Positions 42,917 to 59,196 of a DNA stretch of 64,000 nucleotides are shown here, piece after piece. The position numbers and the translations under genes were made by a program. The stretch's first letter is position 1. Every line of letters starts with the position of its first letter. The DNA is taken from positions 1 through 64,000 of the IMG/VR virus record IMGVR_UViG_3300025133_000055. One strand, 5' to 3'. The DNA is from a virus. The notes beneath the pieces were generated by a model, which was not told the origin of the DNA, searched no databases, and saw nothing but the letters and a program-made list of their open reading frames with translations.

Positions 42917-43153
42917 ATGATGAAGCCAGGACAGATCATTCAGCACTGCTGTAAATTTCTCGATAAGGAAGAAGAAGAAATGGACCGCCATTTAATTTTA
43001 TCGGTGGATGAAGAATGGCTGGAAACTTATGTTTTGTTTACTAACTGGCCGGAAGGCCCACATCGTGTGGGTGAACTTCAGCAAATACTCGTTTCAACTA
43101 TCGAGTCCGAAGAAGAGACAACGAACAATTTTTATTGGAAAATAGTCTCTTGA
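42917..43153 (+). CDS. FKxGQ-family small protein
   Basis: A 78-residue protein, MMKPGQIIQHCCKFLDKEEEEMDRHLILSVDEEWLETYVLF, ending NNFYWKIVS. The K-P-G-Q-I-I start, a central LIL strand and a terminal W-K are the family marks. GAGG lies 9 bp before the ATG. The stop is overlapped by the next promoter. Confidence 0.6.
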   Translation: MMKPGQIIQHCCKFLDKEEEEMDRHLILSVDEEWLETYVLFTNWPEGPHRVGELQQILVSTIESEEETTNNFYWKIVS

Positions 43154-43204
43154 CATTCTCTTGACAACTTAGTTGTTGACATGAGGCTCTTTATCCTGTA
43201 TAAT
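43150..43204 (+). promoter_or_regulatory. Triple-box promoter P1
   Basis: Boxes TTGACA at 43150, 43161 and 43176 and TATAAT at 43199-43204. Spacing is 11, 15 and 23 bp (17-bp spacer). This is the first of six promoters with the same geometry. The repeated sequence TTGACATTCTCTTGACAACTT is shared with others. Confidence 0.8.
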
Positions 43205-44512: not shown

Positions 44513-44683
44513 ATGCCTTATCGTGACGAACCATCCCTTAAAGACCTTTACACTATTTCTTCTGAGGAATACTACGAAGAAAACTATGATTTTGGCGGGT
44601 CATATGATCCAATGCCTCTCGATATGGAGGAAGAATGCCCACAATGGATGCAGGAGCAAATTGATGAAGAAATCCCCTTTTAA
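44513..44683 (+). CDS. Small acidic protein
   Basis: A 56-residue acidic Tyr-rich protein from ATG 44513 (AAGGAG upstream): MPYRDEPSLKDLYTISSEEYYEENYDFGGSYDPM..., ending QEQIDEEIPF. It is first behind promoter P2. Acidic small phage proteins sometimes mimic DNA; that is only a possibility here. Confidence 0.5.
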   Translation: MPYRDEPSLKDLYTISSEEYYEENYDFGGSYDPMPLDMEEECPQWMQEQIDEEIPF

Positions 44684-45129: not shown

Positions 45130-45349
45130 AGTTGGCCAAGCTGTTGAGGAATTTTATTCCGATAGTCATAAGTGGGTTTCCACCTACCTTATCCTTCAAG
45201 TGGATTATGTGGGAAGGGTAGTCGAGGCGCTGTGCCTGGGAGAATCGGAAGATCACGGCTACACTGGCGGACATATTGTGAAATTCCCCTTTACTGTTTT
45301 CACGGATCCGCCCGAGAGTTATTGGAAAGTAAATGAAAAATCAGTTTAA
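45119..45349 (+). CDS. FKxGQ-family small protein
   Basis: A 76-residue protein from ATG 45119 (CAGGAG upstream), MEFEVGQAVEEFYSDSHKWVSTYLILQVDYVGRVVEALCLGES, ending SYWKVNEKSV. The final EKSV codons overlap the MKNQFKPG start of the next gene; the same junction recurs at 45776. Confidence 0.65.
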   Translation: MEFEVGQAVEEFYSDSHKWVSTYLILQVDYVGRVVEALCLGESEDHGYTGGHIVKFPFTVFTDPPESYWKVNEKSV

Positions 45350-45596
45350 ACCTGGGCAAATCATTAACGAGTATTGTGTATGGAAAACTGACAGATTGTT
45401 TTCGTCTTATTTAATAATTGATGAAGGCGGTTATCAAAATATGCACTGGAAATGTTTGTGTATATATAACGACTGTGCCGATATCAGGGAAAAGCCAGGA
45501 GAAACGCGCTTTATCAAAAAAGAGTGGCTGGCAAATCAGTCCAGCGCGAAGCAGCGCAACTGGCCATCTTTCTGGAAAATTGAAAATGAAGTTTGA
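45333..45596 (+). CDS. FKxGQ-family small protein
   Basis: An 87-residue protein, MKNQFKPGQIINEYCVWKTDRLFSSYLIIDEGGYQNMHWKCLCIYND, ending WPSFWKIENEV. It has opening motif, LII strand, W-K-C-L-C strand, P-G-E-T-(R)F and terminal F-W-K. These define the family best. Confidence 0.65.
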   Translation: MKNQFKPGQIINEYCVWKTDRLFSSYLIIDEGGYQNMHWKCLCIYNDCADIREKPGETRFIKKEWLANQSSAKQRNWPSFWKIENEV

Positions 45597-45792
45597 AACA
45601 GGACAAATCGTTGTGCAATCTATGAATGGCATCCAGGGAATTGTTTTGGAACACAAGACTACACCTCACAATTCGTATTACAATAAGGTAATTATCTACT
45701 GTACTTTCGCTCCTCACAATTCATCATTGGTTGGACAAGCCCTGGAGCTTAGCGCCTTTGGGCTAAAGGTTAAAGATGAAAAATCAGTTTAA
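45586..45792 (+). CDS. FKxGQ-family small protein
   Basis: A 68-residue protein, MKFETGQIVVQSMNGIQGIVLEHKTTPHNSYYNKVIIYCTFAPHNSSLVGQALEL, ending KVKDEKSV. Its start overlaps the upstream end and its end overlaps the next MKNQFKPG, a duplicated cassette boundary. Confidence 0.65.
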   Translation: MKFETGQIVVQSMNGIQGIVLEHKTTPHNSYYNKVIIYCTFAPHNSSLVGQALELSAFGLKVKDEKSV

Positions 45793-46060
45793 ACCTGGGG
45801 ATTTGATTGGGAACGCCCCAAATGGATACCATCCCGATGAGCCACTGCCTCCACAACTCATGGCGAGTGGCGATTTCCGAGGTATAATCTTGGATATCAA
45901 TAGTATCGGAGACGGCGGCTTTCGTCAGTGGTGCATAACGCTGCTTATCACGCTGAATCTAAATTACAATGAGTATTTTCAGAAAGAATACCCCGTTAAT
46001 ACAGTTAAAACCTTAACAATCAACGACCTTTCAAAATGGAGAAAGATAATAAATGTTTGA
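45776..46060 (+). CDS. FKxGD-family small protein
   Basis: A 94-residue protein, MKNQFKPGDLIGNAPNGYHPDEPLPPQLMASGDFRGIILDINS..., ending LSKWRKIINV. Its first eight residues are the same as those of the gene at 45333 and encoded by near-identical DNA. Confidence 0.65.
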   Translation: MKNQFKPGDLIGNAPNGYHPDEPLPPQLMASGDFRGIILDINSIGDGGFRQWCITLLITLNLNYNEYFQKEYPVNTVKTLTINDLSKWRKIINV

Positions 46061-46298
46061 AGCAATTTACATCAACCGAGATCAGGCTTTTGAATTCGAT
46101 AATGGGCAGGATCTCTATTTTGGTCCGGTTGGAACTTGGTTTTCAGTCCGCGCCGATGCTCTCCTGAGATCCCGTCCTGGCGGATACGACAAGACTCACA
46201 CTGAAATACTAAAATCATATGGTACAGAAAATATCCTGCTTGTACGCACACAATCCTGCGGTCCAGGCTGGTATCAAATTCACCCGAACGAAAGATAG
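46053..46298 (+). CDS. Hypothetical small protein
   Basis: An 81-residue protein, MFEAIYINRDQAFEFDNGQDLYFGPVGTWFSVRADALLRSRPGGYDKTHTEIL..., overlapping the upstream gene. Not clearly of the FKxGD family; function unknown. A late-promoter-like element follows it. Confidence 0.5.
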   Translation: MFEAIYINRDQAFEFDNGQDLYFGPVGTWFSVRADALLRSRPGGYDKTHTEILKSYGTENILLVRTQSCGPGWYQIHPNER

Positions 46299-46304
46299 AT
46301 TATA

Positions 46305-46315
46305 AACTATTTATA
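46305..46315 (+). promoter_or_regulatory. AACTATTTATA element
   Basis: An exact copy lying 7 bp before the first TTGACA of triple-box promoter P3. This is the only place where both promoter types stand together, so the gene at 46406 may be expressed early and late. Confidence 0.4.
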
Positions 46316-46321
46316 AAGTTG

Positions 46322-46376
46322 TTGACATTCTCTTGACAACTTTTTTATTGACTCCAACTGAAAAACCCTGTATAAT
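46322..46376 (+). promoter_or_regulatory. Triple-box promoter P3
   Basis: TTGACA at 46322 and 46333, TTGACT at 46348, TATAAT at 46371-46376: the same 11/15/23 spacing. Confidence 0.8.
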
Positions 46377-46405
46377 GTATATACATTCAACGGAGATCCT
46401 CTCAC

Positions 46406-46996
46406 ATGCCCGCACAACTTGAACGAATTGAAAAACTCCTCGAAAATCAGGACTTGTCAGCTTCTAACCGCTCTTTCGCGGAGTCGTTGAGGAATAGCCA
46501 CAAAAAGTGGAAATCTCTCACTTTTGCTCAGTGGTCTGCATTCGAGAGGATGGAAGCCCGCTATGACCCTGCCGTCATTAACGCTCGAAAAGAGTGGACC
46601 AATGCCTGGAATAACGAAAAGGCTAAGAACCTTCGCATTGCTGCTGAGTATTACCTTCAAAATCCGCCTTATTTCGGTGACATCGCCGCGAAGATTGTTT
46701 CGGACGAAACTTATGTTCCGTCTGCTAAGCTTTATCGCAAGATGGTCGAAAACAAGTACGTTCAAAAGGTGCTTACAACCCGTGCTTCCGAGCCTGCCTT
46801 TGAAGTCGGCTCGCTGGTAAAGGTTCGCAAAACCAGTAGAAATCACCGTCTGAGAGATCGGATCGCTATGGTTGTCGATAATAACGGAGTAGTCAAGACA
46901 TCAGCTAAGGGAGGAAAAACCTACACTATCCTTCCTTTCGGTGAAGCGAACACGATCCAGATCGAAGAACGTTGGCTCAAAAGACACCGAGGATAA
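46406..46996 (+). CDS. Helical protein with C-terminal FKxG-like barrel
   Basis: A 196-residue protein. Residues 1-125 are helical (LERIEKLLENQDLSASNRSFAESLRNSHKKW, PSAKLYRKMVENKYVQKVL). From 130, PAFEVGSLVKVRKTSRNHRLRDRIAMVVDNNGVVKTSAKGGKTYTILPFGE gives the same small-barrel unit as the family, here fused to a helical domain. This fusion is the best hint that the small proteins work as binding modules. Confidence 0.55.
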   Translation: MPAQLERIEKLLENQDLSASNRSFAESLRNSHKKWKSLTFAQWSAFERMEARYDPAVINARKEWTNAWNNEKAKNLRIAAEYYLQNPPYFGDIAAKIVSDETYVPSAKLYRKMVENKYVQKVLTTRASEPAFEVGSLVKVRKTSRNHRLRDRIAMVVDNNGVVKTSAKGGKTYTILPFGEANTIQIEERWLKRHRG

Positions 46997-46998
46997 AG

Positions 46999-47238
46999 AT
47001 GCTTGAACCTGTACAATTGAAGGCCGGGGATGTTATCTCTCAAGTCCACGGCGAAAAGGAAGTTTTAAGGGTAGCTTTAACGAAGGCCGACGAGGAGATT
47101 TTGGAGGGTTACATTTTGCTCAGCGATTACGAAACCTGGGGGCAGGAAAACATAGGGGAAACCTTCCGAATGACGACGGATTATTTTTCAGCATGGTCGA
47201 ATAATAAAACTGCCTTTGTTTATTGGAGGGTAGTGTGA
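46999..47238 (+). CDS. FKxGD-family small protein
   Basis: A 79-residue protein from ATG 46999, MLEPVQLKAGDVISQVHGEKEVLRVALTKADEEILEGYILLSDYETWGQENIGETFRMTTDYF, ending FVYWRVV. It has L-K-A-G-D-V-I opening, YILL strand, I-G-E-T-F and terminal W-R. Confidence 0.6.
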   Translation: MLEPVQLKAGDVISQVHGEKEVLRVALTKADEEILEGYILLSDYETWGQENIGETFRMTTDYFSAWSNNKTAFVYWRVV

Positions 47239-47328
47239 AAACACAGATTTAAACTTGAATATGGCCAAGTGGGGCCAATTAACAAAAAACCCAGCCCGTT
47301 GCTGTATAGGGCTGGCTCTCGATTCTAA
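47235..47328 (+). pseudogene. Frameshifted remnant of an FKxGQ-family gene
   Basis: GTG 47235 reads M-K-T-Q and then stops. A one-base shift at about 47247 continues as F-K-L-E-Y-G-Q-V-G-P-I-N-K-K and ends at TAA 47326-47328. This equals the MKNQFKPGQII opening of intact members. It is read as a decayed copy. Confidence 0.4.
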
Positions 47329-47472
47329 GGGTTGAAGGTTGCTTATCGTGGATGCGGTACATAAAGGGCTTTCTATCTCCATTATCGAGGGGGCTACCAT
47401 GAGAGTGTCAACAACAGATTTATGCAGATAGGAAGTCGGCTATCCGAGAAAAACGACACCGGCCCCACTTGG
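47265..47472 (+). other. Gene-free stretch closed by a 12-bp inverted repeat; possible structured RNA
   Basis: CCAAGTGGGGCC (47265-47276) and GGCCCCACTTGG (47461-47472) are perfectly complementary. Inside lie CCAGCCC (47291-47297) with GGGCTGG (47309-47315), and TCGG-CTAT-CCGA near 47450. The stretch 47239-47592 holds this, a gene remnant and promoter P4. A folded RNA or a remnant of a mobile cassette are both possible. Confidence 0.35.
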
Positions 47473-47511
47473 TCATCATCTATTTACCAGTTTGAAACTT
47501 TATAAAATCTC

Positions 47512-47566
47512 TTGACATTTTCTTTACAATTTAGTTATTGACTTGAACCGAAATATCCTGTATAAT
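47512..47566 (+). promoter_or_regulatory. Triple-box promoter P4
   Basis: TTGACA at 47512, TTTACA at 47523, TTGACT at 47538, TATAAT at 47561-47566: 11/15/23 spacing, with the middle box degenerate. Confidence 0.75.
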
Positions 47567-47592
47567 ATAGGTACAAATTAGGAGTTCCCAGT

Positions 47593-48369
47593 ATGTCTAT
47601 TCGCCGTCCAAATTCTGCCCATAAAAGAACCGTCCGTTGCTCATTTTGCTATGAGAGAGGACATAACAAGTCATCCTGTCCAAAATACGCCGCGAAAATA
47701 GAGGATTTTCGTACTAAATACGGTGATGACCATTATGATGTCCGCCGCTTTGACGCGAAGAAAGCCAGAAGACACGCGAAGGCCAAGGATCGCAAGTGCT
47801 CATATTGCGACGGGAAAGGCCACAATCGCGCGACCTGTCCTGAACTACTCAGCCACATTCGCGAAAGTCAGGCTAAAACCGCCTCTTTCCGCAAGTCGAT
47901 GCTCGCGCGAATGAAGGCGCTGGGAATTGGTGTTGGGACTGTTTTGTCAACGGATAGGTTTATGGGTCGCACCAATAAGGATGATTATGAATCTGCGCGC
48001 TATCGCATCCCGCACGTTATTACACTTATAAACTGGGATAATATCAATCACTTTAATCGAGAATACTCTTATTTTGATGGCAATGCCCCGTGGGTTTCCA
48101 AGCCTTTATGCGAGATCTCGGCACGTTGGAATAGTGAACCGGGCTGGCCCTGGGACGCCGAAATTGTGAAGTTACTTATGGGAGAAGCAAATGCGACAGA
48201 ATGGATTGAAGGAACCCACTGGCGATTCGATCGAAGGATGCAATATTTTTGTGATGTAGAATGCCCGGTACCAACCCCACAGCCGCCCCACAAGTGGCTT
48301 CTCGGGGGAGATCTAAAGTATTGGAAAGGGATTTATAAGAAAACAAAATCCTATTCAGGGGCTTTGTAA
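47593..48369 (+). CDS. Protein with two CCHC zinc knuckles
   Basis: A 258-residue protein. Two retroviral-type zinc knuckles, C-x2-C-x4-H-x4-C, lie at residues 16-29 and 69-82, separated by a basic helical linker (FDAKKARRHAKAKDRK). Such knuckles bind single-stranded nucleic acid. The C-terminal 150 residues (GVGTVLSTDRFMGRTNKDDYESARYRIPHVITLINWD) are unrecognised. AGGAG precedes the ATG. It sits between small-protein operons and the AAA+ gene, each with its own promoter. Confidence 0.7.
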   Translation: MSIRRPNSAHKRTVRCSFCYERGHNKSSCPKYAAKIEDFRTKYGDDHYDVRRFDAKKARRHAKAKDRKCSYCDGKGHNRATCPELLSHIRESQAKTASFRKSMLARMKALGIGVGTVLSTDRFMGRTNKDDYESARYRIPHVITLINWDNINHFNREYSYFDGNAPWVSKPLCEISARWNSEPGWPWDAEIVKLLMGEANATEWIEGTHWRFDRRMQYFCDVECPVPTPQPPHKWLLGGDLKYWKGIYKKTKSYSGAL

Positions 48370-48383
48370 GCCTCTTTTCACCC

Positions 48384-48438
48384 TTGACATTCTCTTGACA
48401 ACTTTCTTATTGACCTAAGCCAAAATATCGTGTATAAT
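48384..48438 (+). promoter_or_regulatory. Triple-box promoter P5 (AAA+ gene)
   Basis: TTGACA at 48384 and 48395, TTGACC at 48410, TATAAT at 48433-48438: 11/15/23 spacing. Confidence 0.8.
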
Positions 48439-48484
48439 GTATACATAACTTGAACCTCTTCCCTACTTATCACTGGAGCCTAAA

Positions 48485-49639
48485 ATGTCCGTCGCCATCA
48501 CATTCTCAAACCTCTCTTCAATGATCCCGGCCCTTTTATCGGGTGACGAAAACAACCTTTATTCCGTTCTTATCCGTGGTCGCCACGGTATCGGCAAATC
48601 GTGGATTGCATACCAGACCGCCGCTGGCCTGACGTGGGATAAGAAGGCCAAAACTACGCGCCCGATTAAGAAGGGCGAAACTCCTCTTCCGGTAGAAGAG
48701 CAGCGCGCATCACAGATGACTGAGGGCGATCTGCTGGGTTTGCCGAGTCCAGAGATGGTTAAGATCAATGGCGAGCTTGCGGCCAACCTGCGCCCATTTG
48801 CTTGGCTTATAAGGGCATGCACGGAGCCGGTTGTGCTTTTCCTCGATGAGATCGATCGAGGCACCACCGAGGTACGTCAGGGATTTTTCCAGCTTGGCGA
48901 TAGCCGTCAAATCAACGGCTGGAAATTGCACCCTGGAACCGTTGTTTTCGGTGCAGTCAACGGCGGCGTTCACGCAGCCCAGTATCAGGTCGCCGATATG
49001 GATCCCGCAGAACTTGATCGCTGGGTTACTTTCGATGTCGAACCTTCTATTGAAGATTGGCTTAACTGGGGCAAAACCGAGGTTCATCCTATCGTATGGG
49101 ACTTTATTAATCAGAATCACGATCATCTGGAGCACAAAGGCGAATTTGAGCCGGGTACCGTATACCCATCACGCCGATCGTGGCACCGCTTGAGTAACAC
49201 ACTCGCTAAGGTCGATATGCTCGACGACGAAAACGCCGATTTAGGCTTGCTTTTCAACCTGAGTCATGGATTTGTCGGCTTTGAAGCTGCGGTTTGCTTC
49301 CGCGACTTCGTTGAGAATTTCGAGCGTCAAGTAACCGTTGAGGATATCTTAGATGATGGCAAGATCGAGAAAACCAAAGATTTTGGCCTAGTTGATCATG
49401 TCGCTTTAATTGAGAAAATGGCAGCACGCGCCGTATTCGCTGCTAAAATTGAGGATCCCCGAATGATCAATTTAGTCGCCTACTTTGATGCACTCCCGGC
49501 TGAGGCTCGAATGAAGTTATTCACAACTTTAACTGAGGACAATAACCAGATCTCAGCGGACAACGGCTCCACATTCCACAGAGAATTAGCTAGACAGGGC
49601 AAGGTTGGAGCATTTATTAAGCTTCTCGGTGGGAAGTAA
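48485..49639 (+). CDS. MoxR-type AAA+ ATPase
   Basis: A 384-residue ATPase: Walker A GRHGIGKS (32-39), Walker B VVLFLDEID (116-124), then VVFGAVNGG (sensor 1) and DPAELDRW (arginine-finger/sensor region). MoxR-type ATPases act as chaperones with VWA-domain partners. The next gene encodes such a partner (DUF2201, VWA with HExxH), so together they form a MoxR/VWA system. A hairpin follows the stop. The target in the phage cycle is unknown. Confidence 0.8.
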   Translation: MSVAITFSNLSSMIPALLSGDENNLYSVLIRGRHGIGKSWIAYQTAAGLTWDKKAKTTRPIKKGETPLPVEEQRASQMTEGDLLGLPSPEMVKINGELAANLRPFAWLIRACTEPVVLFLDEIDRGTTEVRQGFFQLGDSRQINGWKLHPGTVVFGAVNGGVHAAQYQVADMDPAELDRWVTFDVEPSIEDWLNWGKTEVHPIVWDFINQNHDHLEHKGEFEPGTVYPSRRSWHRLSNTLAKVDMLDDENADLGLLFNLSHGFVGFEAAVCFRDFVENFERQVTVEDILDDGKIEKTKDFGLVDHVALIEKMAARAVFAAKIEDPRMINLVAYFDALPAEARMKLFTTLTEDNNQISADNGSTFHRELARQGKVGAFIKLLGGK

Positions 49640-49649
49640 AACACAGGTT

Positions 49650-49673
49650 GAAGGGGGCTTTTTCGCCCCCTTC
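49650..49673 (+). terminator. Hairpin terminator after the AAA+ gene
   Basis: GAAGGGGGC (49650-49658) and GCCCCCTTC (49665-49673) form a perfect 9-bp stem with a TTTTTC loop, 11 bp after the stop and 7 bp before promoter P6. It would separate AAA+ and VWA transcripts. Confidence 0.65.
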
Positions 49674-49679
49674 GGCCTC

Positions 49680-49734
49680 TTGACATTCTTTTGACAATTG
49701 TTTTATAGACAAGTGCACTAAGATCGTGTATAAT
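49680..49734 (+). promoter_or_regulatory. Triple-box promoter P6 (VWA gene)
   Basis: TTGACA at 49680 and 49691, TAGACA at 49706, TATAAT at 49729-49734: 11/15/23 spacing. Confidence 0.8.
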
Positions 49735-49759
49735 ATATATATAAATCGGAGCTTCCTAC

Positions 49760-51112
49760 ATGACAACTATCGCCACAAAACCCGCTACTGAGGTTCTACC
49801 TTTTAATCTCGATGAACACATTGTTGATCTTTTGAGAGATGAACCCTTTTTTGCCGCTTTATCCCGTCGTATGGATAAGGTACCTTCAACCCGGATCCCT
49901 ACCGCTGGCGTGTGCTTAAATGAGGAACGATGCCGGTTTGAACTGGTTTATAACCCGATCTTCATGGGATCGATCCTTGCACGCGATAGGAAATTCGTTA
50001 AGGGTATTTTGCTCCATGAATTTTATCACATTGTGCTTTTGCATGTCACTACTCGCTTGCCAGATGGTAAAATGTCTAAAAAGTGGAATATTGCAACCGA
50101 TTTAGCGATTAATAGCGATCTTTCAATCTTTGATCACGCCGAGACATCTACAGGCTGGAAAATGGTTAGTACAATATTGCCCGAAGAAGCACTGTTTCCG
50201 ACCGTAGGCCCATTTGCAGAGTTTCCACCGGGATTATCGGCCGAGGAGTATCTTGAAATGCTGCCCGAGGGCGACGACGAAGGCGACGAAGGCGACGAAG
50301 GCGGCGAAGGCGAAGGCTCCGGCGCTGGGAAGGGAAAAGGGCAGAAAGAAAGTGATGAATCCGACGAAGGTGAGGAGGGAAGTGAGGGATCTGGCGATAG
50401 TGACGGTCCCTCCTCACCTTCCGAGGGTCACGGTGACCATTCCAATTGGGGCGACTCTGACGGTACAGATGAAAAACGTAAGATTGCGGAAGAGCGCCTA
50501 AAGGAAAATATTAAAGAGTCTTTCGTTGAGTCGCAATCTAAGGGGTTCGGATCTGTATCGGCTGGCATGCGCCGACAAATTAAAGAAGCGATCACACCTA
50601 AAGTCAATTGGCGTTCTATCCTTCGTTCATTCGTCAAGGCTTCTCAAAGAGCGGATAGAACCTCGACAATTAAGAAATTAAATCGCCGCTATGCCTATAT
50701 CCATCCGGGCCGCAAAGCAAAGCGCCAAGCGAAAATAGCGGTTTCAATTGATCAATCGGGCAGTGTGTCCGATCAAATGCTTGTCGCATTTTACGCCGAG
50801 CTTGAAAAGCTTTCTCAGCTTGCTGAATTCACGGTAATCCCCTTTGATACCGAGGTTGCCGAGGATCATGTTCACGTCTGGAAAAAAGGTGAGCGTCATG
50901 AGAAGGCCCGTTATAGATACGGCGGAACCTGCTTTAATTGCTGCACCAAATGGGTCAACGAACGACAGTTCGATGGTCACATTGTCCTGACTGATATGGA
51001 GGCTCCTAAGCCGGTTCCGAGCAAGTCTCAGCGTATGTGGATGACAACCAAGCGATGCGCCGAGCACCCTTATTTCAAAACCAACGAAAGAGTGATCGCA
51101 ATCGATGATTAA
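49760..51112 (+). CDS. DUF2201-type VWA protein with metallopeptidase-like HExxH
   Basis: A 450-residue protein. N-terminal domain with LLHEFYHIVLLH (HEFYH at 86-90), a zinc-peptidase-like motif typical of the DUF2201 group. A linker at about 170-245 is low-complexity Gly/Asp/Glu/Ser. The C-terminal VWA domain has MIDAS D331-x-S-x-S (SIDQSGSVS), T390 (GGTCF) and D412 (LTDMEAP). In bacteria DUF2201 genes neighbour MoxR ATPases, as here. It may be a metal-dependent protease or substrate receptor for the ATPase. Confidence 0.8.
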   Translation: MTTIATKPATEVLPFNLDEHIVDLLRDEPFFAALSRRMDKVPSTRIPTAGVCLNEERCRFELVYNPIFMGSILARDRKFVKGILLHEFYHIVLLHVTTRLPDGKMSKKWNIATDLAINSDLSIFDHAETSTGWKMVSTILPEEALFPTVGPFAEFPPGLSAEEYLEMLPEGDDEGDEGDEGGEGEGSGAGKGKGQKESDESDEGEEGSEGSGDSDGPSSPSEGHGDHSNWGDSDGTDEKRKIAEERLKENIKESFVESQSKGFGSVSAGMRRQIKEAITPKVNWRSILRSFVKASQRADRTSTIKKLNRRYAYIHPGRKAKRQAKIAVSIDQSGSVSDQMLVAFYAELEKLSQLAEFTVIPFDTEVAEDHVHVWKKGERHEKARYRYGGTCFNCCTKWVNERQFDGHIVLTDMEAPKPVPSKSQRMWMTTKRCAEHPYFKTNERVIAIDD

Positions 51113-51371
51113 AGAGTTTAAAACCGAGGAATTGAAGGTAGGTGATATAATATCCCTTCGCGCGGGTTTACAGCCCGCTCCTCTTGATCATTTTACAGAA
51201 TGGTCCAGGCTGGCAATCTTTGAGATTACCAATAGGTTAATTAGAACCGTTATTTTGCTTGATAGGACTGATGGCTTCGCGCCCGGAACCCTTTACAATT
51301 TCCAGATAATCGACTTAGAACGGGCCTTAGAGACAGGCGCCCGTTGGAGGCTTTTGTGCGATTCAAAGTAG
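51105..51371 (+). CDS. FKxGD-family small protein
   Basis: An 88-residue protein, MIKEFKTEELKVGDIISLRAGLQPAPLDHFTEWSRLAIFEITN, ending ARWRLLCDSK. L-K-V-G-D-I-I and terminal R-W-R fit the family. It overlaps the VWA gene by 8 bp and so may be cotranslated with it. Confidence 0.6.
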   Translation: MIKEFKTEELKVGDIISLRAGLQPAPLDHFTEWSRLAIFEITNRLIRTVILLDRTDGFAPGTLYNFQIIDLERALETGARWRLLCDSK

Positions 51372-51589
51372 GCGATTTGGTACTTAATAGGCTGGAATCC
51401 GAGCAGGGCGAAGAGGTAGATTGCGAGGGGATTATCGTCCAGCACTGGCAAACGCCGAGCATGGACGGCCCTGGAACTGTCGATAACGTAGTTTTATACA
51501 TAACTCTCGACCGGTCATGGCCCACACAAACGAATAAAGTAGTTACACACCGGGGTTTCAAAGAATTCCAATGGGAACTAAAACAATGA
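51356..51589 (+). CDS. FKxGD-family small protein
   Basis: A 77-residue protein from GTG 51356 (TTGGAGG just upstream), MRFKVGDLVLNRLESEQGEEVDCEGIIVQHWQTPS..., ending FQWELKQ. An overlapping short ORF (51586-51672, MKPRFMQVERGFS...) follows and looks like a truncated family start. Confidence 0.6.
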   Translation: MRFKVGDLVLNRLESEQGEEVDCEGIIVQHWQTPSMDGPGTVDNVVLYITLDRSWPTQTNKVVTHRGFKEFQWELKQ

Positions 51590-51641
51590 AGCCCAGGTTT
51601 ATGCAGGTTGAAAGGGGATTCTCGGCTCTATCTACTACAGG

Positions 51642-51902
51642 ATGGAGCACAAATTCAAAAGGGGCGACCTAATACAATATATCAGGACCGAAGCACTTTA
51701 TCTGCTATTGGAGCAAGTGGAACTCACAGAGCTTACCACCAAATATAAGAGGAAGGGAGTCGGTTTTCGCGTGATGGTGATTTATTCAGGTAGAAGCTAC
51801 ACAAAGCAGAGTACAATAACAACAATTTTTATTCCTTTCACTGCACCCTATTATGTAGTTTTAAGCTCGGCTCTCGGCGCCACCCAGGAAAACCGGGCTT
51901 GA
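51642..51902 (+). CDS. FKxGD-family small protein
   Basis: An 86-residue protein, MEHKFKRGDLIQYIRTEALYLLLEQVELTELTTKYKRKGVGFRVMVIYSG. F-K-R-G-D-L-I opening followed by an LLLEQV strand. No clear ribosome site beyond GGATGGAGC. Confidence 0.55.
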   Translation: MEHKFKRGDLIQYIRTEALYLLLEQVELTELTTKYKRKGVGFRVMVIYSGRSYTKQSTITTIFIPFTAPYYVVLSSALGATQENRA

Positions 51903-51951
51903 ACGCCGATTTTTATTCGCCAAATTTTTTTAATCCACTAGGGACAACGAT

Positions 51952-52176
51952 ATGCTAGATTTAAAGCCAGGAATGTTAATTGAAGTCATAAGTCCGGTCC
52001 TTACCGAGGACAACCGCATATGGCACCTCCTCATATTGGAGGAAGAACCCGCACATTGGGTGACTCGCATGGTTTATAATAATACGAAAAAGCCAAAAGA
52101 TTACTTTCGCATCGAGAAATTATATTTAGAAAACAGATCGAGAGCGAATCAACTTAGAATCCTATCCGAAATTTAA
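51952..52176 (+). CDS. FKxG-family small protein
   Basis: A 74-residue protein, MLDLKPGMLIEVISPVLTEDNRIWHLLILEEEPAHWVTRMVYNNTKKPKDYFRIEKLYL. L-K-P-G-M-L-I opening and HLLILEE strand. AGGGAC precedes the ATG. Confidence 0.55.
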   Translation: MLDLKPGMLIEVISPVLTEDNRIWHLLILEEEPAHWVTRMVYNNTKKPKDYFRIEKLYLENRSRANQLRILSEI

Positions 52177-52222
52177 TAAATGACAATGAAAGATATATTT
52201 TTCGATACCCCAGAGGCCAAAA

Positions 52223-52573
52223 GTGAATCCTCACATATATGAATATATTTTTAGTCCTGGCGATATTGTAGCTGAAAGCTGGACTTTGCCCGAGAGTGGC
52301 AATATAAAAAGAGAAGAGGTTCTCCGCGTGCTTATCATTGATAAGCGAGATAGATGGTGCGATATGAACGATATCTATTATGTAGAATACCAAACAAGGG
52401 TAGTTTTTGCGCATCCCGATCGGCTTCCGCTCCATCCAGAAGGAAGGGACTTTAAACCCGGTGATACCTGGGTTTTGACGTCTTGGGAAGAGGATAATGT
52501 GAAGAAATGGAATAATGACTGGCGATCGTGGGAAGTCCTGCTTGAATCGGGCTTATCGTGGGAAGGAGAGTAA
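52223..52573 (+). CDS. FKxGD-family protein with two copies of the motif
   Basis: A 116-residue protein with GTG start. FSPGDIVAESWTLPE near the N-terminus and DFKPGDTWVLTSW near residue 83 are two family openings. The end, SWEVLLESGLSWEGE, contains SGLSW, which is also readable in the non-coding stretches at 47341 and 54665, suggesting gene remnants there. A 20-codon ORF at 52179-52241 overlaps its start and is probably a leader or spurious. Confidence 0.55.
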   Translation: MNPHIYEYIFSPGDIVAESWTLPESGNIKREEVLRVLIIDKRDRWCDMNDIYYVEYQTRVVFAHPDRLPLHPEGRDFKPGDTWVLTSWEEDNVKKWNNDWRSWEVLLESGLSWEGE

Positions 52574-52967
52574 AAGTGGGCGTTTGCACCGCGACAATGG
52601 GATACTTTGTCCTATTTCTCTATTTTTCATCGATGGTGACCGCCGTGATTGTCCTCTTGGGAAGGTGGAAATGACGACTTTACAAGCCCTTGACATAATA
52701 AAGATGTACAATAAGCCGCTTACGCGGTATAATATGTATATGAAATCGAGCACTTCACCACTTTTTACCCTTCCCGCGCGCTTCCTGCTCGTCTGCGCGA
52801 TTATGGAGTTTATAACTTGCTTTCTAAGTCAAACCAAAAATATTGGAGGATTCACCGCCGATGACATTCAGTTTGGCGCGTTATGTTTGGAAGTCGCGCA
52901 CCCATCCCGCAAAAGCCCCTTTAACCTTGCTTTTCACCAAAGCTATCACTTTCAGTCAGAGAGCATT
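52574..52967 (+). other. 394-bp stretch with a promoter and no secure gene
   Basis: TATAAT at 52728-52733 is preceded at 17 bp by TGTACA (52705-52710), a plausible promoter. The frame is open from 52515 but contains several possible starts, and the best supported gene begins at 52968. A 38-codon basic ORF at 52861-52977 (MTFSLARYVWKSRTHPAK...) has GGAGG 12 bp upstream and might be expressed. CCGC-TTAC-GCGG forms a small stem at the -10 side. Confidence 0.3.
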
Positions 52968-53240
52968 ATGTCTTTAAAAACCGACAAATCCACACCCCTT
53001 GAGGCGGCGAATAGCGCCGCTTCATCCTTCGCTATTAACCTGCTCCTTAACACGGCTATCACCGAGACTCTCAAGACCATCGAAAAAATGCGCTTAGAAG
53101 GCCAGGAATTGCTCGGCGAGTTCAAGGCGAGTGAGGGTCCAGCGAAAGAGAAGGTTAAAACTGCCATATCGCTGAACATTCAAGACCGCAAATTCCTGCT
53201 AAAAGCTATTTTTACGAACCCTATCGAAAAGGATGTTTAA
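52968..53240 (+). CDS. Helical hypothetical protein
   Basis: A 90-residue protein from ATG 52968, MSLKTDKSTPLEAANSAASSFAINLLLNTAITETLKTIEKMRLEGQELLGEF..., nearly all helix with NIQDRKFLLKAIFT at the end. The frame extends 450 bp upstream, so a longer form cannot be excluded. Confidence 0.5.
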   Translation: MSLKTDKSTPLEAANSAASSFAINLLLNTAITETLKTIEKMRLEGQELLGEFKASEGPAKEKVKTAISLNIQDRKFLLKAIFTNPIEKDV

Positions 53241-53243
53241 ACC

Positions 53244-53516
53244 ATGAATATCATCAATTACAAAGCAAATCAAACTATAGTCGAGGCCCGAGACGATCAG
53301 GGAAAACCCAGTTTCACGGCCCTTTTATCATATGGCGTACCACAATGCGTTATCCTCCATAAGGAAGGTTTAAACCTGATTAACACAAAGCGGTATTCGA
53401 ATACCACTTCAAAGCACCGCAACGCATACGCGCGCGATATGATGCCTTCTAACTTCACAACCATCGACGCCACTCCCGAAGAGATTCAGGAAATAACTGG
53501 CTTGCAAACCCGATAA
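53244..53516 (+). CDS. Hypothetical phage protein
   Basis: A 90-residue protein, MNIINYKANQTIVEARDDQGKPSFTALLSYGVPQCVILHKEGLNLINTKRYSNTTSKHRNAYARDMM, typical of small phage accessory proteins with a TTSKHRNxY stretch. Function not established. Confidence 0.55.
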   Translation: MNIINYKANQTIVEARDDQGKPSFTALLSYGVPQCVILHKEGLNLINTKRYSNTTSKHRNAYARDMMPSNFTTIDATPEEIQEITGLQTR

Positions 53517-53529
53517 TCCGAGGCTCCAA

Positions 53530-53784
53530 ATGAATAAATTAAATAACAGAAACCAGCCGGGCGATTCATCGCTTTCAACCGTCATAACGAGGGATGAAGC
53601 CATTATCCGGTTTGAAACAGAGCTATTGCCTCTTATTATCGAGGAATTTGAGCAGGATGGAGTACCTGATATTCCCGCTCGATCCGAGGCTTTCAACAAC
53701 TGGACCGATGCTCTATGTAAGGACGGCGAGATCAGCGAGTGGCAATATAATAACTGGACGCACCCAGACTCTTGTGAGTATTAA
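53530..53784 (+). CDS. Hypothetical phage protein
   Basis: An 84-residue acidic helical protein, TVITRDEAIIRFETELLPLIIEEFEQDGVPDIPARSEAFNNWTDALCKDGEISEWQYNNW. It resembles small helical phage proteins of unknown function. Its TAA directly adjoins the next ATG. Confidence 0.55.
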   Translation: MNKLNNRNQPGDSSLSTVITRDEAIIRFETELLPLIIEEFEQDGVPDIPARSEAFNNWTDALCKDGEISEWQYNNWTHPDSCEY

Positions 53785-54060
53785 ATGAGTTCAAACCTTC
53801 TATATCCAGAGGTCGGTGATATTGTGCTTTGTACCCATAAAAATATCAAAGAGGTGGGAAAGTTCATTGTCCTCCAAAAGAAGGTTTATACCAGTGATAT
53901 CGTCTATGCTTGCATGTGCCTATGGTTTGATAATTTCTATAATGCCATTGATGCCGAAAATGCAGGGGAAACCTTTACTATCACCCATAAGGAGATGACT
54001 TTAATATCGGCCTTGGATGAGTATCGGTTCTCCCTTGATTATCGGCCAGAGGAGGGATAA
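53785..54060 (+). CDS. FKxGD-family protein, tandem copy 1
   Basis: A 91-residue protein, LYPEVGDIVLCTHKNIKEVGKFIVLQKKVYTSDIVYACMCLWFDN, with AGETFTITH and the ending RFSLDYRPEEG. It shares VGKFIVLxK and xxLDYRPEEG with the next two genes: a tandem triplication. The ORFs follow with no gap. Confidence 0.65.
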   Translation: MSSNLLYPEVGDIVLCTHKNIKEVGKFIVLQKKVYTSDIVYACMCLWFDNFYNAIDAENAGETFTITHKEMTLISALDEYRFSLDYRPEEG

Positions 54061-54360
54061 ATGAGTTTGAAAGTCAAAGATATCAAAGTCGGTGATATGC
54101 TAGTTTGCACCACCTCTTCCGAGGCTGCCGTCGAACCCGGCGTTGTAATTGGCAAATTCCTCGTTCTAGCAAAAGAAAGGTCCGAGGCCAACAATAATAA
54201 AAATGATGATAATACAGTTCTAACCTTACATATCATGTATAGGAACCACGAAGGTTCCAAACATGGCCATAAGCAAGGTTCAAACTTCAATATCGCCTTA
54301 GAGTATTTCAACCATGAAGTATACAGGTGGAAACTTGATTATCGTCCAGAGGAGGGATAG
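54061..54360 (+). CDS. FKxGD-family protein, tandem copy 2
   Basis: A 99-residue protein, KDIKVGDMLVCTTSSEAAVEPGVVIGKFLVLAKERSEANNN, ending YRWKLDYRPEEG. The block GKF-LVLAKERSEANNN is nearly identical to copy 3, showing a recent duplication. Confidence 0.65.
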   Translation: MSLKVKDIKVGDMLVCTTSSEAAVEPGVVIGKFLVLAKERSEANNNKNDDNTVLTLHIMYRNHEGSKHGHKQGSNFNIALEYFNHEVYRWKLDYRPEEG

Positions 54361-54654
54361 ATGAGTTTCAACCTTGAGGATGCCGCGCCCGGTGATATAC
54401 TAGTTTTGACCTCCAATTGGTCGAACCATTCGCTGAAAGTCGGCGAGCTACTTGGTAAATTCATCGTTGTCTCAAAAGAAAGGTCCGAGGCCAACAATAA
54501 TAATAATCCTCATTCCAAAGGTTTAACCTTGCATATCATCCAGGCCAAAGAGAGTTATCCTCCCCTGAGTAATAACATAGGAAGAAACTGCTCTTTCAGC
54601 TTTGATCAGATGGATGTCCCAATATTGACTTGGAAACTTGATTATCGTCCATAG
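54361..54654 (+). CDS. FKxGD-family protein, tandem copy 3
   Basis: A 97-residue protein, EDAAPGDILVLTSNWSNHSLKVGELLGKFIVVSKERSEANNN, ending LTWKLDYRP. The final EEG of copies 1 and 2 is lost to a stop. It is the last gene before the 967-bp repeat region. Confidence 0.65.
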   Translation: MSFNLEDAAPGDILVLTSNWSNHSLKVGELLGKFIVVSKERSEANNNNNPHSKGLTLHIIQAKESYPPLSNNIGRNCSFSFDQMDVPILTWKLDYRP

Positions 54655-54948
54655 GGGGAAAGAAATGGTTCAAAGTGGGTTATCGTGGGGGGACATCTGA
54701 CCCATAGGAATGGTAGTTTAAAGCCTGCATATGGCTGTTCCCTTATAGGCAAGGGAGAAAGCGGGGAATCATGCTTTGTATTTAGCCCCTTCTAACTAGT
54801 AAATCAACCCCTATATTATCAACAATATTATCCCCTTGCAACCCCCACAATGCCCCGTGATGCCCATATGAATGTGATCCCCCTCTATAGCGAAGGGTGA
54901 ACCACACATATCGCGGACACACTTAAAATAAACCTATGCCCTTGATAA

Positions 54949-54974
54949 GTCAGCTTTATGCTGGCTTTTTTTTT
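54949..54974 (+). terminator. Rho-independent terminator ending the accessory block
   Basis: GTCAGC (54949-54954), loop TTTAT, GCTGGC (54960-54965), then nine T (54966-54974). It is also part of the left arm of inverted repeat 1. Confidence 0.7.
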
Positions 54975-55049
54975 GTCAAGCATTATTATAACGAATTGAT
55001 ACAATGTTGACAATAAAGTGCTTGACAAGGGAAAAGCCAGCATCAAGCT
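54952..55049 (+). repeat. Inverted repeat 1 with triple-TTGACA loop
   Basis: Arms 54952-54981 and 55020-55049 match at 26 of 30 positions. The 38-nt loop (54982-55019) contains TTGATA (54996) and TTGACA (55007), and the right arm starts at TTGACA (55022): 11 and 15 bp spacing as in promoters P1-P6. Confidence 0.75.
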
Positions 55050-55062
55050 GGCTTATAGAGAA

Positions 55063-55094
55063 TTGATATAAACTTGACAACTTTGTGCTTGACA
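55063..55094 (+). repeat. Triple-TTGACA module without -10 (second copy)
   Basis: TTGATA (55063), TTGACA (55074), TTGACA (55089): spacing 11 and 15 bp. It is preceded by GAGAA and followed by GGGGAAAGCCGGGG. No matching left arm was found. Confidence 0.65.
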
Positions 55095-55163
55095 GGGGAA
55101 AGCCGGGGTTTAAACTTATATATAAGTTACCAGCCCATATTGAAAGGGGGATCGCCCTAAGAG

Positions 55164-55263
55164 AAGTTTATAACTGACCTTTCGTTTGTCAAGTATTATT
55201 ATGACGAATTGACATAAGATTGACATTAATTTGCTTGACAGACGAAAGGTCAGTTATAAACTT
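55164..55263 (+). repeat. Inverted repeat 2 with triple-TTGACA loop
   Basis: Arms 55164-55194 and 55233-55263 match at 29 of 31 positions. The 38-nt loop (55195-55232) aligns with that of repeat 1 and holds TTGACA at 55209 and 55220, with the third at 55235: spacing 11 and 15. The arms differ from those of repeat 1 but keep pairing. Confidence 0.8.
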
Positions 55264-55275
55264 GGCTATGACGAA

Positions 55276-55318
55276 TTGACATTCAATTGACATTCTCTTG
55301 ACAACTTAGTGCTTGACA
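55276..55318 (+). repeat. Quadruple TTGACA module
   Basis: TTGACA at 55276, 55287, 55298 and 55313: spacing 11, 11 and 15 bp. The sequence TTGACATTCTCTTGACAACTT is identical to that in promoters P1, P2, P3 and P5. Confidence 0.75.
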
Positions 55319-55353
55319 GGCTACTAATTACTTTGTAACTCCCTTATGGCGAA

Positions 55354-55384
55354 TTGACATGCATTTGACACAAATCGCTTGACA
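55354..55384 (+). repeat. Triple TTGACA module (last copy)
   Basis: TTGACA at 55354, 55365 and 55379: spacing 11 and 14 bp. No -10 lies at the expected distance. Confidence 0.6.
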
Positions 55385-55400
55385 CAAATTAATAAGTTAC

Positions 55401-55439
55401 AACCTGACATATCGACGATCCCAACTGATTTGTCAGGTT
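55401..55439 (+). repeat. Short inverted repeat 3
   Basis: AACCTGACA (55401-55409) and TGTCAGGTT (55431-55439) form a perfect 9-bp stem around 21 nt, next to the G8/C7 tract. Confidence 0.5.
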
Positions 55440-55591
55440 TAAAGGGGCATATGGGGGGGGTCCCCCCCTCCCCCCACCGGCCGGAAAGTACCTTCCTAAC
55501 TGGGATATGGGCCGCCCCGCGCTGATACACCCGCGAGAGAGCGATTCAAAAATTTCCCAGAATAAAAAAACACAGATATGCGATCCCTAAG

Positions 55592-55602
55592 AACTATTTA
55601 TA
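55592..55602 (+). promoter_or_regulatory. AACTATTTATA element (candidate late promoter)
   Basis: An exact copy 20 bp before the ATG at 55622, the first gene after the repeat region. Confidence 0.5.
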
Positions 55603-55621
55603 AGCAAGAGGATCAAGAAGT

Positions 55622-56999: not shown

Positions 57000-57566
57000 G
57001 TGGCAGCTTCATCATTACCGGTTCCGAAGGGAAGAAATTTATATCTCCCAAAGCAAGTTACTCAAGAATCAATGCATGATTTAACGAAATCAATCATTGA
57101 AATAAACGACAGCGATGATTATTTGAAAAAAATATATGCGATCCATGATTTGGTATATGTTCCCAAGCCGATCAAACTGTATATTGATTCCTATGGGGGT
57201 GCAGTTTATCAGTGCTTCGGTTTGATCGGTGTCATTGAAAAGAGCGAAACTCCTATATGGACAATTGTCACAGGTGCGGCAATGTCCTGCGGGTTCATGA
57301 TTTTAATAAACGGACATAAAAGACTTGGGTACACCCATGCAACTCCGCTCTATCATCAGGTTTCAACTGGGTTTCATGGCAAAGTCCAGGATATGGAGGA
57401 GACCCTTGCCGAAACGAAGCGGCTCCAAAAGAAGATCGAAGAAATGACATGCAGGTTGACAAACATCCCAAAAAAGAAACTCAAGGAAATTTTGAAGAAC
57501 AAAGTTGACTGGTTTATGGATGCAGAGGAGGCACTTCTTCTCGGTGTTATTGACGAAATCATTTGA
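57000..57566 (+). CDS. ClpP-like serine protease with full triad
   Basis: A 188-residue ClpP-fold protease, GTG start. Ser96 is in VTGAAMSCGFMILINGH, His119 in ATPLYHQVSTG and Asp170 in KVDWFMDAEEALLLGVIDEII. The first 60 residues are divergent. Prohead proteases in many phages are ClpP-like, and the surrounding tagged genes carry (I/L)xE motifs, so a head-maturation role is attractive but unproven. It is more likely active than the paralogue at 31295. Confidence 0.75.
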   Translation: MAASSLPVPKGRNLYLPKQVTQESMHDLTKSIIEINDSDDYLKKIYAIHDLVYVPKPIKLYIDSYGGAVYQCFGLIGVIEKSETPIWTIVTGAAMSCGFMILINGHKRLGYTHATPLYHQVSTGFHGKVQDMEETLAETKRLQKKIEEMTCRLTNIPKKKLKEILKNKVDWFMDAEEALLLGVIDEII

Positions 57567-57634: not shown

Positions 57635-58009
57635 GTGAAGAATATTGGAATAGGAATAATTCTATTAATTGGGGGGTTTGGGGTAATACTAATCAGTATG
57701 CTAGCATTCGTTTTTGGGGCAACAGTATCCCTGGCATCACAAGAGGAAAGAATTGGCAGCGCTGTAAACGGCCGAATTGTATACGAAGGCTTTTGCACAG
57801 GATGTCACCAAGCAGACGGTAAAGGAATGAATGGAATGTTGGGTGCAGATTTCACTGATAAAGAAAGAATGAAAAAATCAAACGACGAATTGCTTAAATC
57901 CATAAAATTCGGATTTAAAGGGAAGAACGGTGTGATGCCACCATGGGAAGGGACATTATCAGATAAACAAATGAAAGATGTTTTACAATATATAAGAGAT
58001 GAATTTTAG
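57635..58009 (+). CDS. Membrane-anchored c-type cytochrome (monohaem)
   Basis: A 124-residue protein. Residues 4-35 are a membrane anchor. The haem c site CTGCH is at 54-58 (YEGFCTGCHQADGKG) and Met101 in KNGVMPPWEG is the likely axial ligand, followed by LSDKQMKDVLQYIRDEF. This is the cytochrome c class I plan, located on the periplasmic side. It would need the host cytochrome c maturation system. GTG start behind AGGAGG. A truncated copy of its 3' end lies at 59184. Phage cytochromes are rare. Confidence 0.85.
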   Translation: MKNIGIGIILLIGGFGVILISMLAFVFGATVSLASQEERIGSAVNGRIVYEGFCTGCHQADGKGMNGMLGADFTDKERMKKSNDELLKSIKFGFKGKNGVMPPWEGTLSDKQMKDVLQYIRDEF

Positions 58010-58017
58010 GGGGAAGG

Positions 58018-59196
58018 TTGAAAAAAGCAGAAGAACAAGAAAAGCAAGAAGAATTGGTGAGCTTACAGAAGATAACCGAAAATACCGAAATATCAAAAAT
58101 AACTTTTAATACCCCAAGATTTACACAACTTTTAAGAATGTCAGGAGCTATACTTAAAAACAGGATTTCGTTTAAAAATCCGCTCATGTTAATGCACTCA
58201 GTCACTGAGGCATGTAATGCTAAATGCCCCTATTGTGTATTTCGCCATGGAAAAGGGGGCCCTAACGAAATGTCTCTAGACGAGATTTCCTCTCTATATA
58301 AAGAGGCGGAGAAACTTTCTATGCAATATGTTCACCTCTGGGGAGGTGAGCCGCTTATTCATCCGAGAATTTCTCAAATTTTAACCCTCGCAAAAGAATC
58401 TCGACTAATAACCGGACTTGTTACGAATGGTGCCTTTTTAAGAAAGAAGGCTGATGATATAATCCCCAAGCTTGATAGACTTTATATATCCCTTGATTAC
58501 CCGGGCCCTTATCATAACACTTTGAGGGAAACTCCTGGACTTTATGAAGCCACTATAGAGGGGGTTAAGTATATTCGCTCAAAATGGAAAGATCAACCAA
58601 TAGTCGTTAGTTTTACATTAATGAAAGATAATGCTGATGCTATTGTTGAAATGGCCGCATTATGTAGTGAAATAGGTGCAAGGCTATATGTTAATCCGAT
58701 GCGAGAAACTTCAAATTCAGATTCAGATCAAATCTCAATCCTCCAAAATAAAGAAGTTTTTGAGGTTAATAACAGTGACAGAATAATAAAGTGGACCGAA
58801 CAGTCTTTGATTTGGGAGCAGCTTATACAGCTTAAAAGACAGGGTTATCCCATTCAAAACTCTATGTATTATATGAAAATGTTGGCTAAAACTGGAAAAT
58901 CTCCAACCTACAAATGTCACTGGCCCAAGATTGCCATTGGAATAGAGTCTAATGGAGATATTGCAGACTGTCAAAGGTGGGGGAATCCAATTTCTAATAT
59001 AAGAGAGCAATCTCTCAAGGGTATTGTTCAGCTTCCAAGAATGAAGGAACTTTACGGGGCCTGCGGTGAAGCCTGTAATGAATGTGCATCTCCAGCTAGA
59101 GTGGAGCCTTCAAAATTTTGGGATCTCCATGTCGGAATGATATTGCAAACAGTGCAGAGTATGGTTTTTGGAGCACCTGTTCCAAAGAAAGAATGA
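58018..59196 (+). CDS. Radical SAM protein with C-terminal cysteine cluster (SPASM-like)
   Basis: A 392-residue enzyme with TTG start behind GGGGGAAGG. The radical SAM cluster is C66-x3-C70-x2-C73 (VTEACNAKCPYCVFRHGKG), followed by HLWGGEPLIHPRI and VTNGAFL. C-terminal cysteines in YKCHWP, IADCQRWG and YGACGEACNECAS fit a SPASM-type auxiliary cluster, found in enzymes that modify peptides or cofactors. Its substrate is unknown. It is 8 bp after the cytochrome gene, so the two are likely cotranscribed. Confidence 0.85.
   Translation: MKKAEEQEKQEELVSLQKITENTEISKITFNTPRFTQLLRMSGAILKNRISFKNPLMLMHSVTEACNAKCPYCVFRHGKGGPNEMSLDEISSLYKEAEKLSMQYVHLWGGEPLIHPRISQILTLAKESRLITGLVTNGAFLRKKADDIIPKLDRLYISLDYPGPYHNTLRETPGLYEATIEGVKYIRSKWKDQPIVVSFTLMKDNADAIVEMAALCSEIGARLYVNPMRETSNSDSDQISILQNKEVFEVNNSDRIIKWTEQSLIWEQLIQLKRQGYPIQNSMYYMKMLAKTGKSPTYKCHWPKIAIGIESNGDIADCQRWGNPISNIREQSLKGIVQLPRMKELYGACGEACNECASPARVEPSKFWDLHVGMILQTVQSMVFGAPVPKKE

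What the first reader, a model, noticed from the sequence alone, without database searches (positions are those of the whole stretch)
54949..55449. Array of the same TTGACA modules, two inside 30-bp inverted repeats with compensating arms
The triple box (11/15 bp) recurs five times without a -10. Two copies have a 38-nt loop of conserved sequence and long complementary arms (26/30 and 29/31). The arms of repeat 1 and repeat 2 differ in sequence yet both retain pairing, which points to selection for a cruciform, a hairpin RNA or two-sided binding. Position after the accessory block and before late genes, with no gene for 967 bp, suits an origin or a titration site for the regulator of the promoters P1-P6.
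Basis: partly seen in the sequence, partly recalled or inferred. Interest (0 to 1): 0.88.

Follow-up and report, generated by a model that had tools for sequence, protein, structure and literature searches.

The report
Regulator-site array beside conserved phage element
In a little-known group of large, probably marine bacterial viruses, a gene-free stretch carries a cluster of the same binding sites that control the virus's own accessory-gene promoters, next to a one-per-genome DNA signature that is probably where genome copying starts; the striking hairpins that first drew attention look like copying accidents found only in this one virus.

Summary
Window 54945-55440 holds 14 exact TTGACA boxes (0.6 expected) in five 11/15-bp modules, plus two long inverted repeats (33/38 and 29/30 paired). 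It is only the left half of something larger. The 967-bp gene-free stretch ends in a ~115-bp sequence-conserved element (C-tract, then CCGGAAWGTA..., window 55451-55568). That element is present exactly once in 18 of 18 related virus records searched, always at the end of the accessory block, with no predicted RNA structure. TTGACA-N5-TTGACA (or TTRACA) pairs stand just left of it in 19 of 57 relatives. In the tested loci such arrays occur only where the same paired box sits upstream of accessory-block promoters. The boxes are therefore most likely sites for one unidentified regulator, inside a single-copy cis locus, most probably a replication origin. The hairpins are unique to this phage. 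In the nearest relatives the same flanks do not pair: IR1's arms are both copies of the left flank (a terminator), IR2's both resemble the right flank. This points to inverted copying (template switching), not compensating mutations, so "selection for a cruciform" is not supported. Packaging is unlikely, since terminase lies 75-110 kb away. The regulator was not identified.

The parts
43150..43204 (+). accessory-block promoter P1: TTGACA-N5-TTGACA-N9-TTGACA-N17-TATAAT (others start at 44425, 46322, 47512, 48384, 49680 and, weak, 52679)
   Evidence: same promoter class clustered in one block in 16 related records
54947..54976 (+). intrinsic terminator ending the accessory operon (AAGTCAGC-TTTAT-GCTGGCTT + T run); also the left arm of IR1
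   Evidence: homologous terminator AAGCCAGG-TAACC-CCTGGCTT in G001/G002
54945..54982 (.). IR1 left arm
   Evidence: 33/38 Watson-Crick paired
55019..55056 (.). IR1 right arm; resembles an inverted copy of the left-flank terminator
   Evidence: similar to left flanks of G001/G002 (z 6.2, 4.8), not right flanks (z 0.4, 0.3)
54996..55027 (+). array module 1 (TTGATA, TTGACA, TTGACA)
55063..55094 (+). array module 2
55164..55193 (.). IR2 left arm; resembles an inverted copy of the right flank
   Evidence: similar to right flanks of G001/G002 (z 3.1, 3.3), less to left flanks (z 1.5, 1.6)
55209..55240 (+). array module 3; TTTGTCAAGTATTATTATGACGAATTGACA text before it recurs in L016/L043
55234..55263 (.). 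IR2 right arm
55276..55318 (+). array module 4 (four boxes, 11/11/15)
55354..55384 (+). array module 5 (11/14)
55174..55292 (+). second copy of a block duplication (first copy 54961-55079, offset 213 bp, 72% identical)
   Evidence: family D3
55424..55438 (+). ACTGATTTGTCAGG box, conserved in G001, G002 and L174 left of the C-tract
55451..55568 (+). conserved single-copy element: G-run, C-tract, CCGGAAAGTA, spacer, ...AAATTTCCCAGAATAA
   Evidence: model R1, E 3.3e-12 here; one match per record in 18/18 records

Best explanation
The array is a cluster of binding sites for the same, still unidentified, factor that binds the paired TTGACA boxes (11-bp period, one helical turn) at about -61 and -50 of the accessory-block promoters. 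It forms the variable left half of a single-copy cis locus whose constant right half is the C-tract element. The locus most probably is the phage's replication origin: factor-bound boxes in helical phase mark or load it, the conserved C-tract/CCGGAAWGTA element is the core, and the locus also closes the accessory operon with a terminator. In this phage the array was enlarged by duplication. Its long hairpin arms arose when one flank was copied as an inverted repeat onto the other (replication template switching), in opposite directions in the two copies; they need not be functional. Shown by sequence: boxes shared with promoters, single copy, position, sequence-level conservation, arm similarities. 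Inferred: a common binding factor, template switching, origin function. Not shown: the factor, any replication or binding.
For: Shared boxes: identical TTGACATTCTCTTGACAACTTAGT text at promoter 43150 and array 55287. The paired box clusters in one block, on the gene strand apart from a few stray matches, in 16 other records, with 0 matches to the reversed control pattern. Arrays left of the element: 17 exact pairs in 12 of 57 relatives (29 TTRACA pairs in 19) against 0.01-0.03 in shuffles and 0 at +1.5 and +2.5 kb. All 17 array-bearing loci of 50 have at least one such promoter; none of the 11 loci without promoters has an array (Fisher p 0.009; counts, test). Element: one match per record in 18/18 records of 87-205 kb, no consensus RNA pairs in 35 sequences, in gene-free DNA at the end of the block, conserved although flanking proteins are only about 50% identical. 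Not packaging: terminase 75-110 kb away in 7 of 7 records. Arm origin: IR1 arms resemble the left flank of G001/G002 (z 4.8-6.7) and not the right (z -0.3 to 0.4); IR2 arms resemble the right flank (z 3.1-4.4) more than the left (z 1.3-2.3); the flanks in G001/G002 do not pair. Long inverted repeats are unique to this phage. Template switching is a documented source of apparently compensating stem changes (PMC8794818).
Against: No replication or binding data. In three sampled genomes GC skew does not change sign at the element, so there is no bidirectional-origin signature; all genes lie on one strand, which masks it. About two thirds of relatives have no TTGACA array beside the element, and L174 has none. 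No initiator gene was tied to the boxes. The outgroup for the arm argument is effectively one lineage (G001 and G002 are 32/33 identical there), and the similarity of IR2 arms to the right flank is moderate.
Confidence: 0.5

Rival explanations
1. Transcription hub without a replication role: the locus ends the accessory operon (terminator), and the boxes act as a multi-site operator or titration site for the promoter regulator; the C-tract element is a control site for the genes downstream.
For: Terminator at 54947-54967; boxes identical to promoter boxes; promoter-like TTGACA-16-TAAACT in copies 2 and 3 and a minus-strand TTGTCA-17-TATAAT in IR1; element always lies between the accessory block and the following genes; arrays only seen in loci with the regulon.
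Against: A titration site explains neither the single-copy, strictly placed C-tract element, conserved also in phages that lack the regulon (G011, G012, G015, G016, G018, G020), nor the pairs in fixed 11-bp phase right beside it. No consensus promoter sits between the element and the next gene in the window.
Confidence: 0.28
2. The hairpins are functional (cruciform extrusion, structured RNA or two-sided protein binding) and pairing is kept by selection.
For: Two strong stems with z -10 and -13; 5 of 6 non-Watson-Crick positions are G.T; TTGTCAAG/CTTGACA inverted boxes also frame the module in G001/G002 and L016/L043.
Against: Unique to one genome; homologous flanks in G001/G002 unpaired; the two stems are paralogs, not independent; opposite-direction copying explains the arms; no relevant Rfam family.
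Confidence: 0.1
3. DNA packaging (pac/cos) or genome-terminus site.
For: Single copy, fixed orientation, several contigs end within a few kb of it.
Against: Terminase genes lie 75-110 kb away in seven records; contig ends fall at different distances on either side, as in permuted genomes.
Confidence: 0.07
4. Recombination border for exchanging the accessory block (module-exchange site).
For: GC content steps from about 0.50 to 0.40 at the element averaged over relatives; G001 has an extra gene bracketed by repeats of the AAATTTCCCAGAATAA text beside it.
Against: Homology-based exchange would not by itself keep a spaced ~115-bp motif at this conservation, nor put regulator boxes beside it.
Confidence: 0.05

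Closest known systems
Bacteriophage T4 origins oriF/oriG (MotA-dependent middle promoter + DNA unwinding element; PMC3016281)
   Same: A phage transcription-factor box used both in promoters and at origins; minimal origin of about 100 bp; this phage also has UvsX, gp32-like, DnaB-like and polymerase genes.
   Different: Many boxes and no good -10 in the array; one element per genome; T4 has several origins without common sequence; the C-tract element has no counterpart in the T4 origins described in that review.
Iteron-type origins of plasmids and phages (own knowledge)
   Same: Tandem direct repeats in helical phase next to a conserved core.
   Different: Boxes are shared with a whole set of accessory-gene promoters, not only the initiator's own; no initiator gene identified; array missing in many relatives.
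Pho box / OmpR-family tandem sites (consensus from own knowledge; phage Pho boxes treated in PMC10976474, abstract only seen)
   Same: Read on the other strand the boxes are TGTCA-N6-TGTCA with an 11-bp period.
   Different: Flanking consensus not matched; no OmpR-type (PF00486) gene in 13 records; used upstream of a complete -35/-10.
Quasipalindrome template-switch products (PMC8794818)
   Same: One arm becomes an inverted copy of the other in one event and looks like compensating change.
   Different: Here inferred from one outgroup lineage, in two duplicated units with opposite direction.

Membership tests
Iteron-type replication origin | several direct repeats in helical phase | tested here: met
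   11-bp and 15-bp steps, 14 exact boxes; adjacent-box spacing peak at 11 bp in relatives
Iteron-type replication origin | single locus per genome in non-coding DNA | tested here: met
   one match per record in 18/18 records; gene-free gap
Iteron-type replication origin | cognate initiator that binds the repeats | tested here: inconclusive
   Sigma-region-4-like (A4) and A5 proteins do not track with the boxes; no binding data
Iteron-type replication origin | autonomous replication or replication start mapped there | not testable with these tools
   needs reads or experiment; GC skew keeps its sign across the element
T4-type origin | activator box plus good -10 followed by an unwinding element | tested here: not met
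   array modules have no TATAAT at 15-19 bp; best is TAAACT
Pho box | CTGTCATAWAWCTGTCAY consensus (from memory) | tested here: not met
   only the TGTCA cores and the 11-bp period agree when the boxes are read on the other strand; no PF00486 gene in 13 records
Intrinsic terminator | GC-rich stem followed by T run at the end of an operon | tested here: met
   54947-54967, 8 pairs, then T run
Structured non-coding RNA | covarying base pairs in relatives or Rfam match | tested here: not met
   element: 0 consensus pairs in 35 sequences; no Rfam gathering hit in the window; only sub-threshold microRNA-type hairpin matches in the region; arms unpaired in nearest relatives
Packaging (pac) site | adjacent to terminase genes | tested here: not met
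   75-110 kb away in seven records

The most novel reading that the evidence does not exclude
A widespread, undescribed group of roughly 190-205 kb, probably marine phages uses one new type of cis element (C-tract + CCGGAAWGTATGTC...) as its sole origin, and one phage factor that both drives the accessory-block promoters and marks that origin through in-phase TTGACA pairs, coupling early transcription to replication start.
Probability: 0.3. Interest if true: 0.75.

Novelty: new variant of a known kind. Interest (0 to 1): 0.55.

Why it matters
If right, it gives a searchable signature (one hit per genome) for the replication start of a large uncultured phage group, and a defined promoter class (TTGACATTCTCTTGACAACTT upstream of -35/-10) with an unknown regulator; both become directly testable. 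It also shows a case where 'compensating' hairpin arms are better explained by inverted copying than by selection, a caution for reading covariation in single genomes.

Tried and rejected
Blastn of the array against cultured phages: no real match. ClpP-anchored relatives (L047-L126): not syntenic, no array, since ClpP is more widespread than this group. Pattern TGTCAAGNANNNNTATNANGAATTGA: only G001 and G002 plus a chance coding hit, L127. Sigma-region-4-like protein as box binder: present in 11 of 19 records, but absent from the box-bearing G000, G001, G002, G005, G006 and G010 and present in the box-less G011, G012, G015, G016, G018: rejected. Small conserved protein A5 (window 29187-29513): in 18 of 19 records including box-less ones, so not specific. 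OmpR-type regulator: none found. Profile of block proteins against regulon presence: best hits confounded with clade and not present in the window. RNA reading of the element: no consensus pairs. GC-skew test for an origin: uninformative. TerL by PF17289: no hits; phrog_2 worked. Literature: TTGACATTCTCTTGACA not found.

Full report
What is there. The window is part of an 87,145-bp IMG/VR virus record with a phage replication gene set: DnaE-like polymerase, DnaB-like helicase, UvsX, gp32-like protein, ribonucleotide reductase. All 14 exact TTGACA boxes of 54945-55440 lie on the + strand in five modules. Shuffles give 0.58 boxes on average and essentially never an 11-bp pair. The array sits in a 967-bp gene-free gap (54655-55621) directly after a block of small accessory genes. 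Six promoters in that block carry the same boxes 11 and 15 bp apart, followed by TATAAT 17 bp after the third box; a seventh, at 52679, is weaker.

The promoter class is widespread. An IMG/VR scan for TTGACA-N5-TTGACA-N9-TTGACA gave 37 stretches, nearly all with a TATAAT-like -10 at the right distance. In whole records the pair TTGACA-N5-TTGACA occurs up to 11 times per genome, mostly in one block of about 8-15 kb on the gene strand, with no matches to the reversed control pattern; 9 of the 25 relatives' records examined have none. The consensus cTTGACAttctcTTGACAactt is far more conserved than the third box, which behaves as an ordinary -35 (TTGACT, TTTACT, TAGACA). This suggests a protein that reads boxes 1 and 2 as two direct half-sites on one face of the helix (inference).

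The array is half of a conserved locus. In the two nearest relatives with the array, G001 (193 kb) and G002 (114 kb), the gap at the end of the block is homologous: terminator, TTTTGTCAAG-ATTATTAT, boxes, GCTTGACA, then a G/C tract and CCGGAAAGTA...CTGGGATAT.GGCCG...AAATTTCCCAGAATAA. A MoxR-anchored search gave 80 further loci. A profile of the right half found the element in most of them. A sequence-only model R1 finds exactly one match in each of 18 records of 87-205 kb. RNAalifold predicts no pair in 35 sequences, so it is conserved as sequence, not as RNA structure. An exact form of its core is found in 13 IMG/VR stretches and in no bacterial or archaeal genome.

Boxes beside the element. 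In the 150 bp left of the element, 57 distinct relatives hold 17 exact TTGACA-N5-TTGACA pairs (12 loci) and 29 TTRACA pairs (19 loci). Shuffles give 0.01-0.03, and control stretches 1.5 and 2.5 kb downstream give 0. Adjacent-box spacing peaks at 11 bp. Arrays occur only in loci that also have the promoter class: 17 of 39 with, 0 of 11 without (p 0.009). The loci are related, so the p-value overstates independence. Hence array and promoters very likely share one factor.

The hairpins. The two inverted repeats are strong but unique: in 57 relatives the best 20-nt arm left of the element is 12-16 of 20, against 20 of 20 here. The two units are copies of one 213-bp block (D3). With G001/G002 as outgroup, both arms of IR1 resemble the outgroup's left flank, the terminator (z 4.8-6.7), and not its right flank (z about 0). 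Both arms of IR2 resemble the right flank (z 3.1-4.4) more than the left (z 1.3-2.3). In the outgroup the two flanks do not pair (z -1.4 and -0.9). So IR1 looks like left copied onto right, and IR2 like right copied onto left. That is the pattern expected of template switching between short inverted boxes (TGTCAAG...CTTGACA), a documented mutation mechanism (PMC8794818). It does not need selection for a cruciform. Limits: 33-nt comparisons, and effectively one outgroup lineage.

What the locus does. A single-copy, sequence-conserved, gene-free element with in-phase factor boxes fits a replication origin best. T4 is a precedent for an origin built on a promoter factor's box (PMC3016281). Packaging is unlikely because terminase lies 75-110 kb away in seven records. 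GC skew does not help: all genes lie on one strand and skew keeps its sign throughout three sampled genomes, apart from near-zero stretches. A GC step from 0.50 to 0.40 occurs at the element. A purely transcriptional hub remains a serious rival. L174, one of the nearest relatives by MoxR, has the element without the array, so the array modulates rather than defines the locus.

The factor. Tested candidates fail: the small sigma-region-4-like protein and the A5 protein do not follow the boxes, and no OmpR-type gene exists in the records searched. The factor remains unknown.

Verdict. Observation confirmed; interpretation partly supported (origin or regulator site plausible; selected cruciform not). 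Best explanation at 0.5: an expanded regulator-site array at the putative single origin of an undescribed phage group, with hairpins as by-products of inverted copying.

Noticed in passing
L265-L277 (11 of 19 records): Small Cys-rich protein (85-129 aa) with a C-terminal sigma-70 region 4-like helix-turn-helix, encoded next to an A5-type protein and, in the three loci read, IMP dehydrogenase; possible phage transcription factor.
   Followed up: partly
window 23337-24335: Homolog of 2-aminooxy adenylosuccinate synthetase (PurZ-like, phrog_1211), raising the possibility of modified (2-aminoadenine) DNA.
   Followed up: no
window 57635-58006 and 58018-59193: Phage-encoded small cytochrome c and a radical SAM protein just downstream of the locus, next to one of two ClpP genes (57000-57563, 31295-31867).
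   Followed up: no
window 33303-34868 and 13633-13899: GroEL-like and Cpn10-like proteins.
   Followed up: no
window 43471-54651: Series of small proteins starting F-K-x-G-D/Q-x-I/V that look like paralogs, each short operon behind its own paired-box promoter.
   Followed up: no
L160 14435-15209 and L162 11733-12432: A second gene-free gap with two TTGACA modules in the opposite orientation to the genes, text nearly identical to the window's IR2 loop.
   Followed up: partly
L160 17077-17825: Extra gene (about 228 aa) with its own sigma-70-type promoter inserted beside the element, bracketed by a 21-nt repeat (CCAGAAAATTCCCCAGAATAA).
   Followed up: partly
G006, G013, G016 (sampled every 10 kb): Nearly all genes lie on one strand over 190-203 kb, with the element in the same direction.
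   Followed up: partly
window 55013-54985 (minus strand): Promoter-like TTGTCA-17-TATAAT inside the IR1 loop, pointing back into the accessory block.
   Followed up: no
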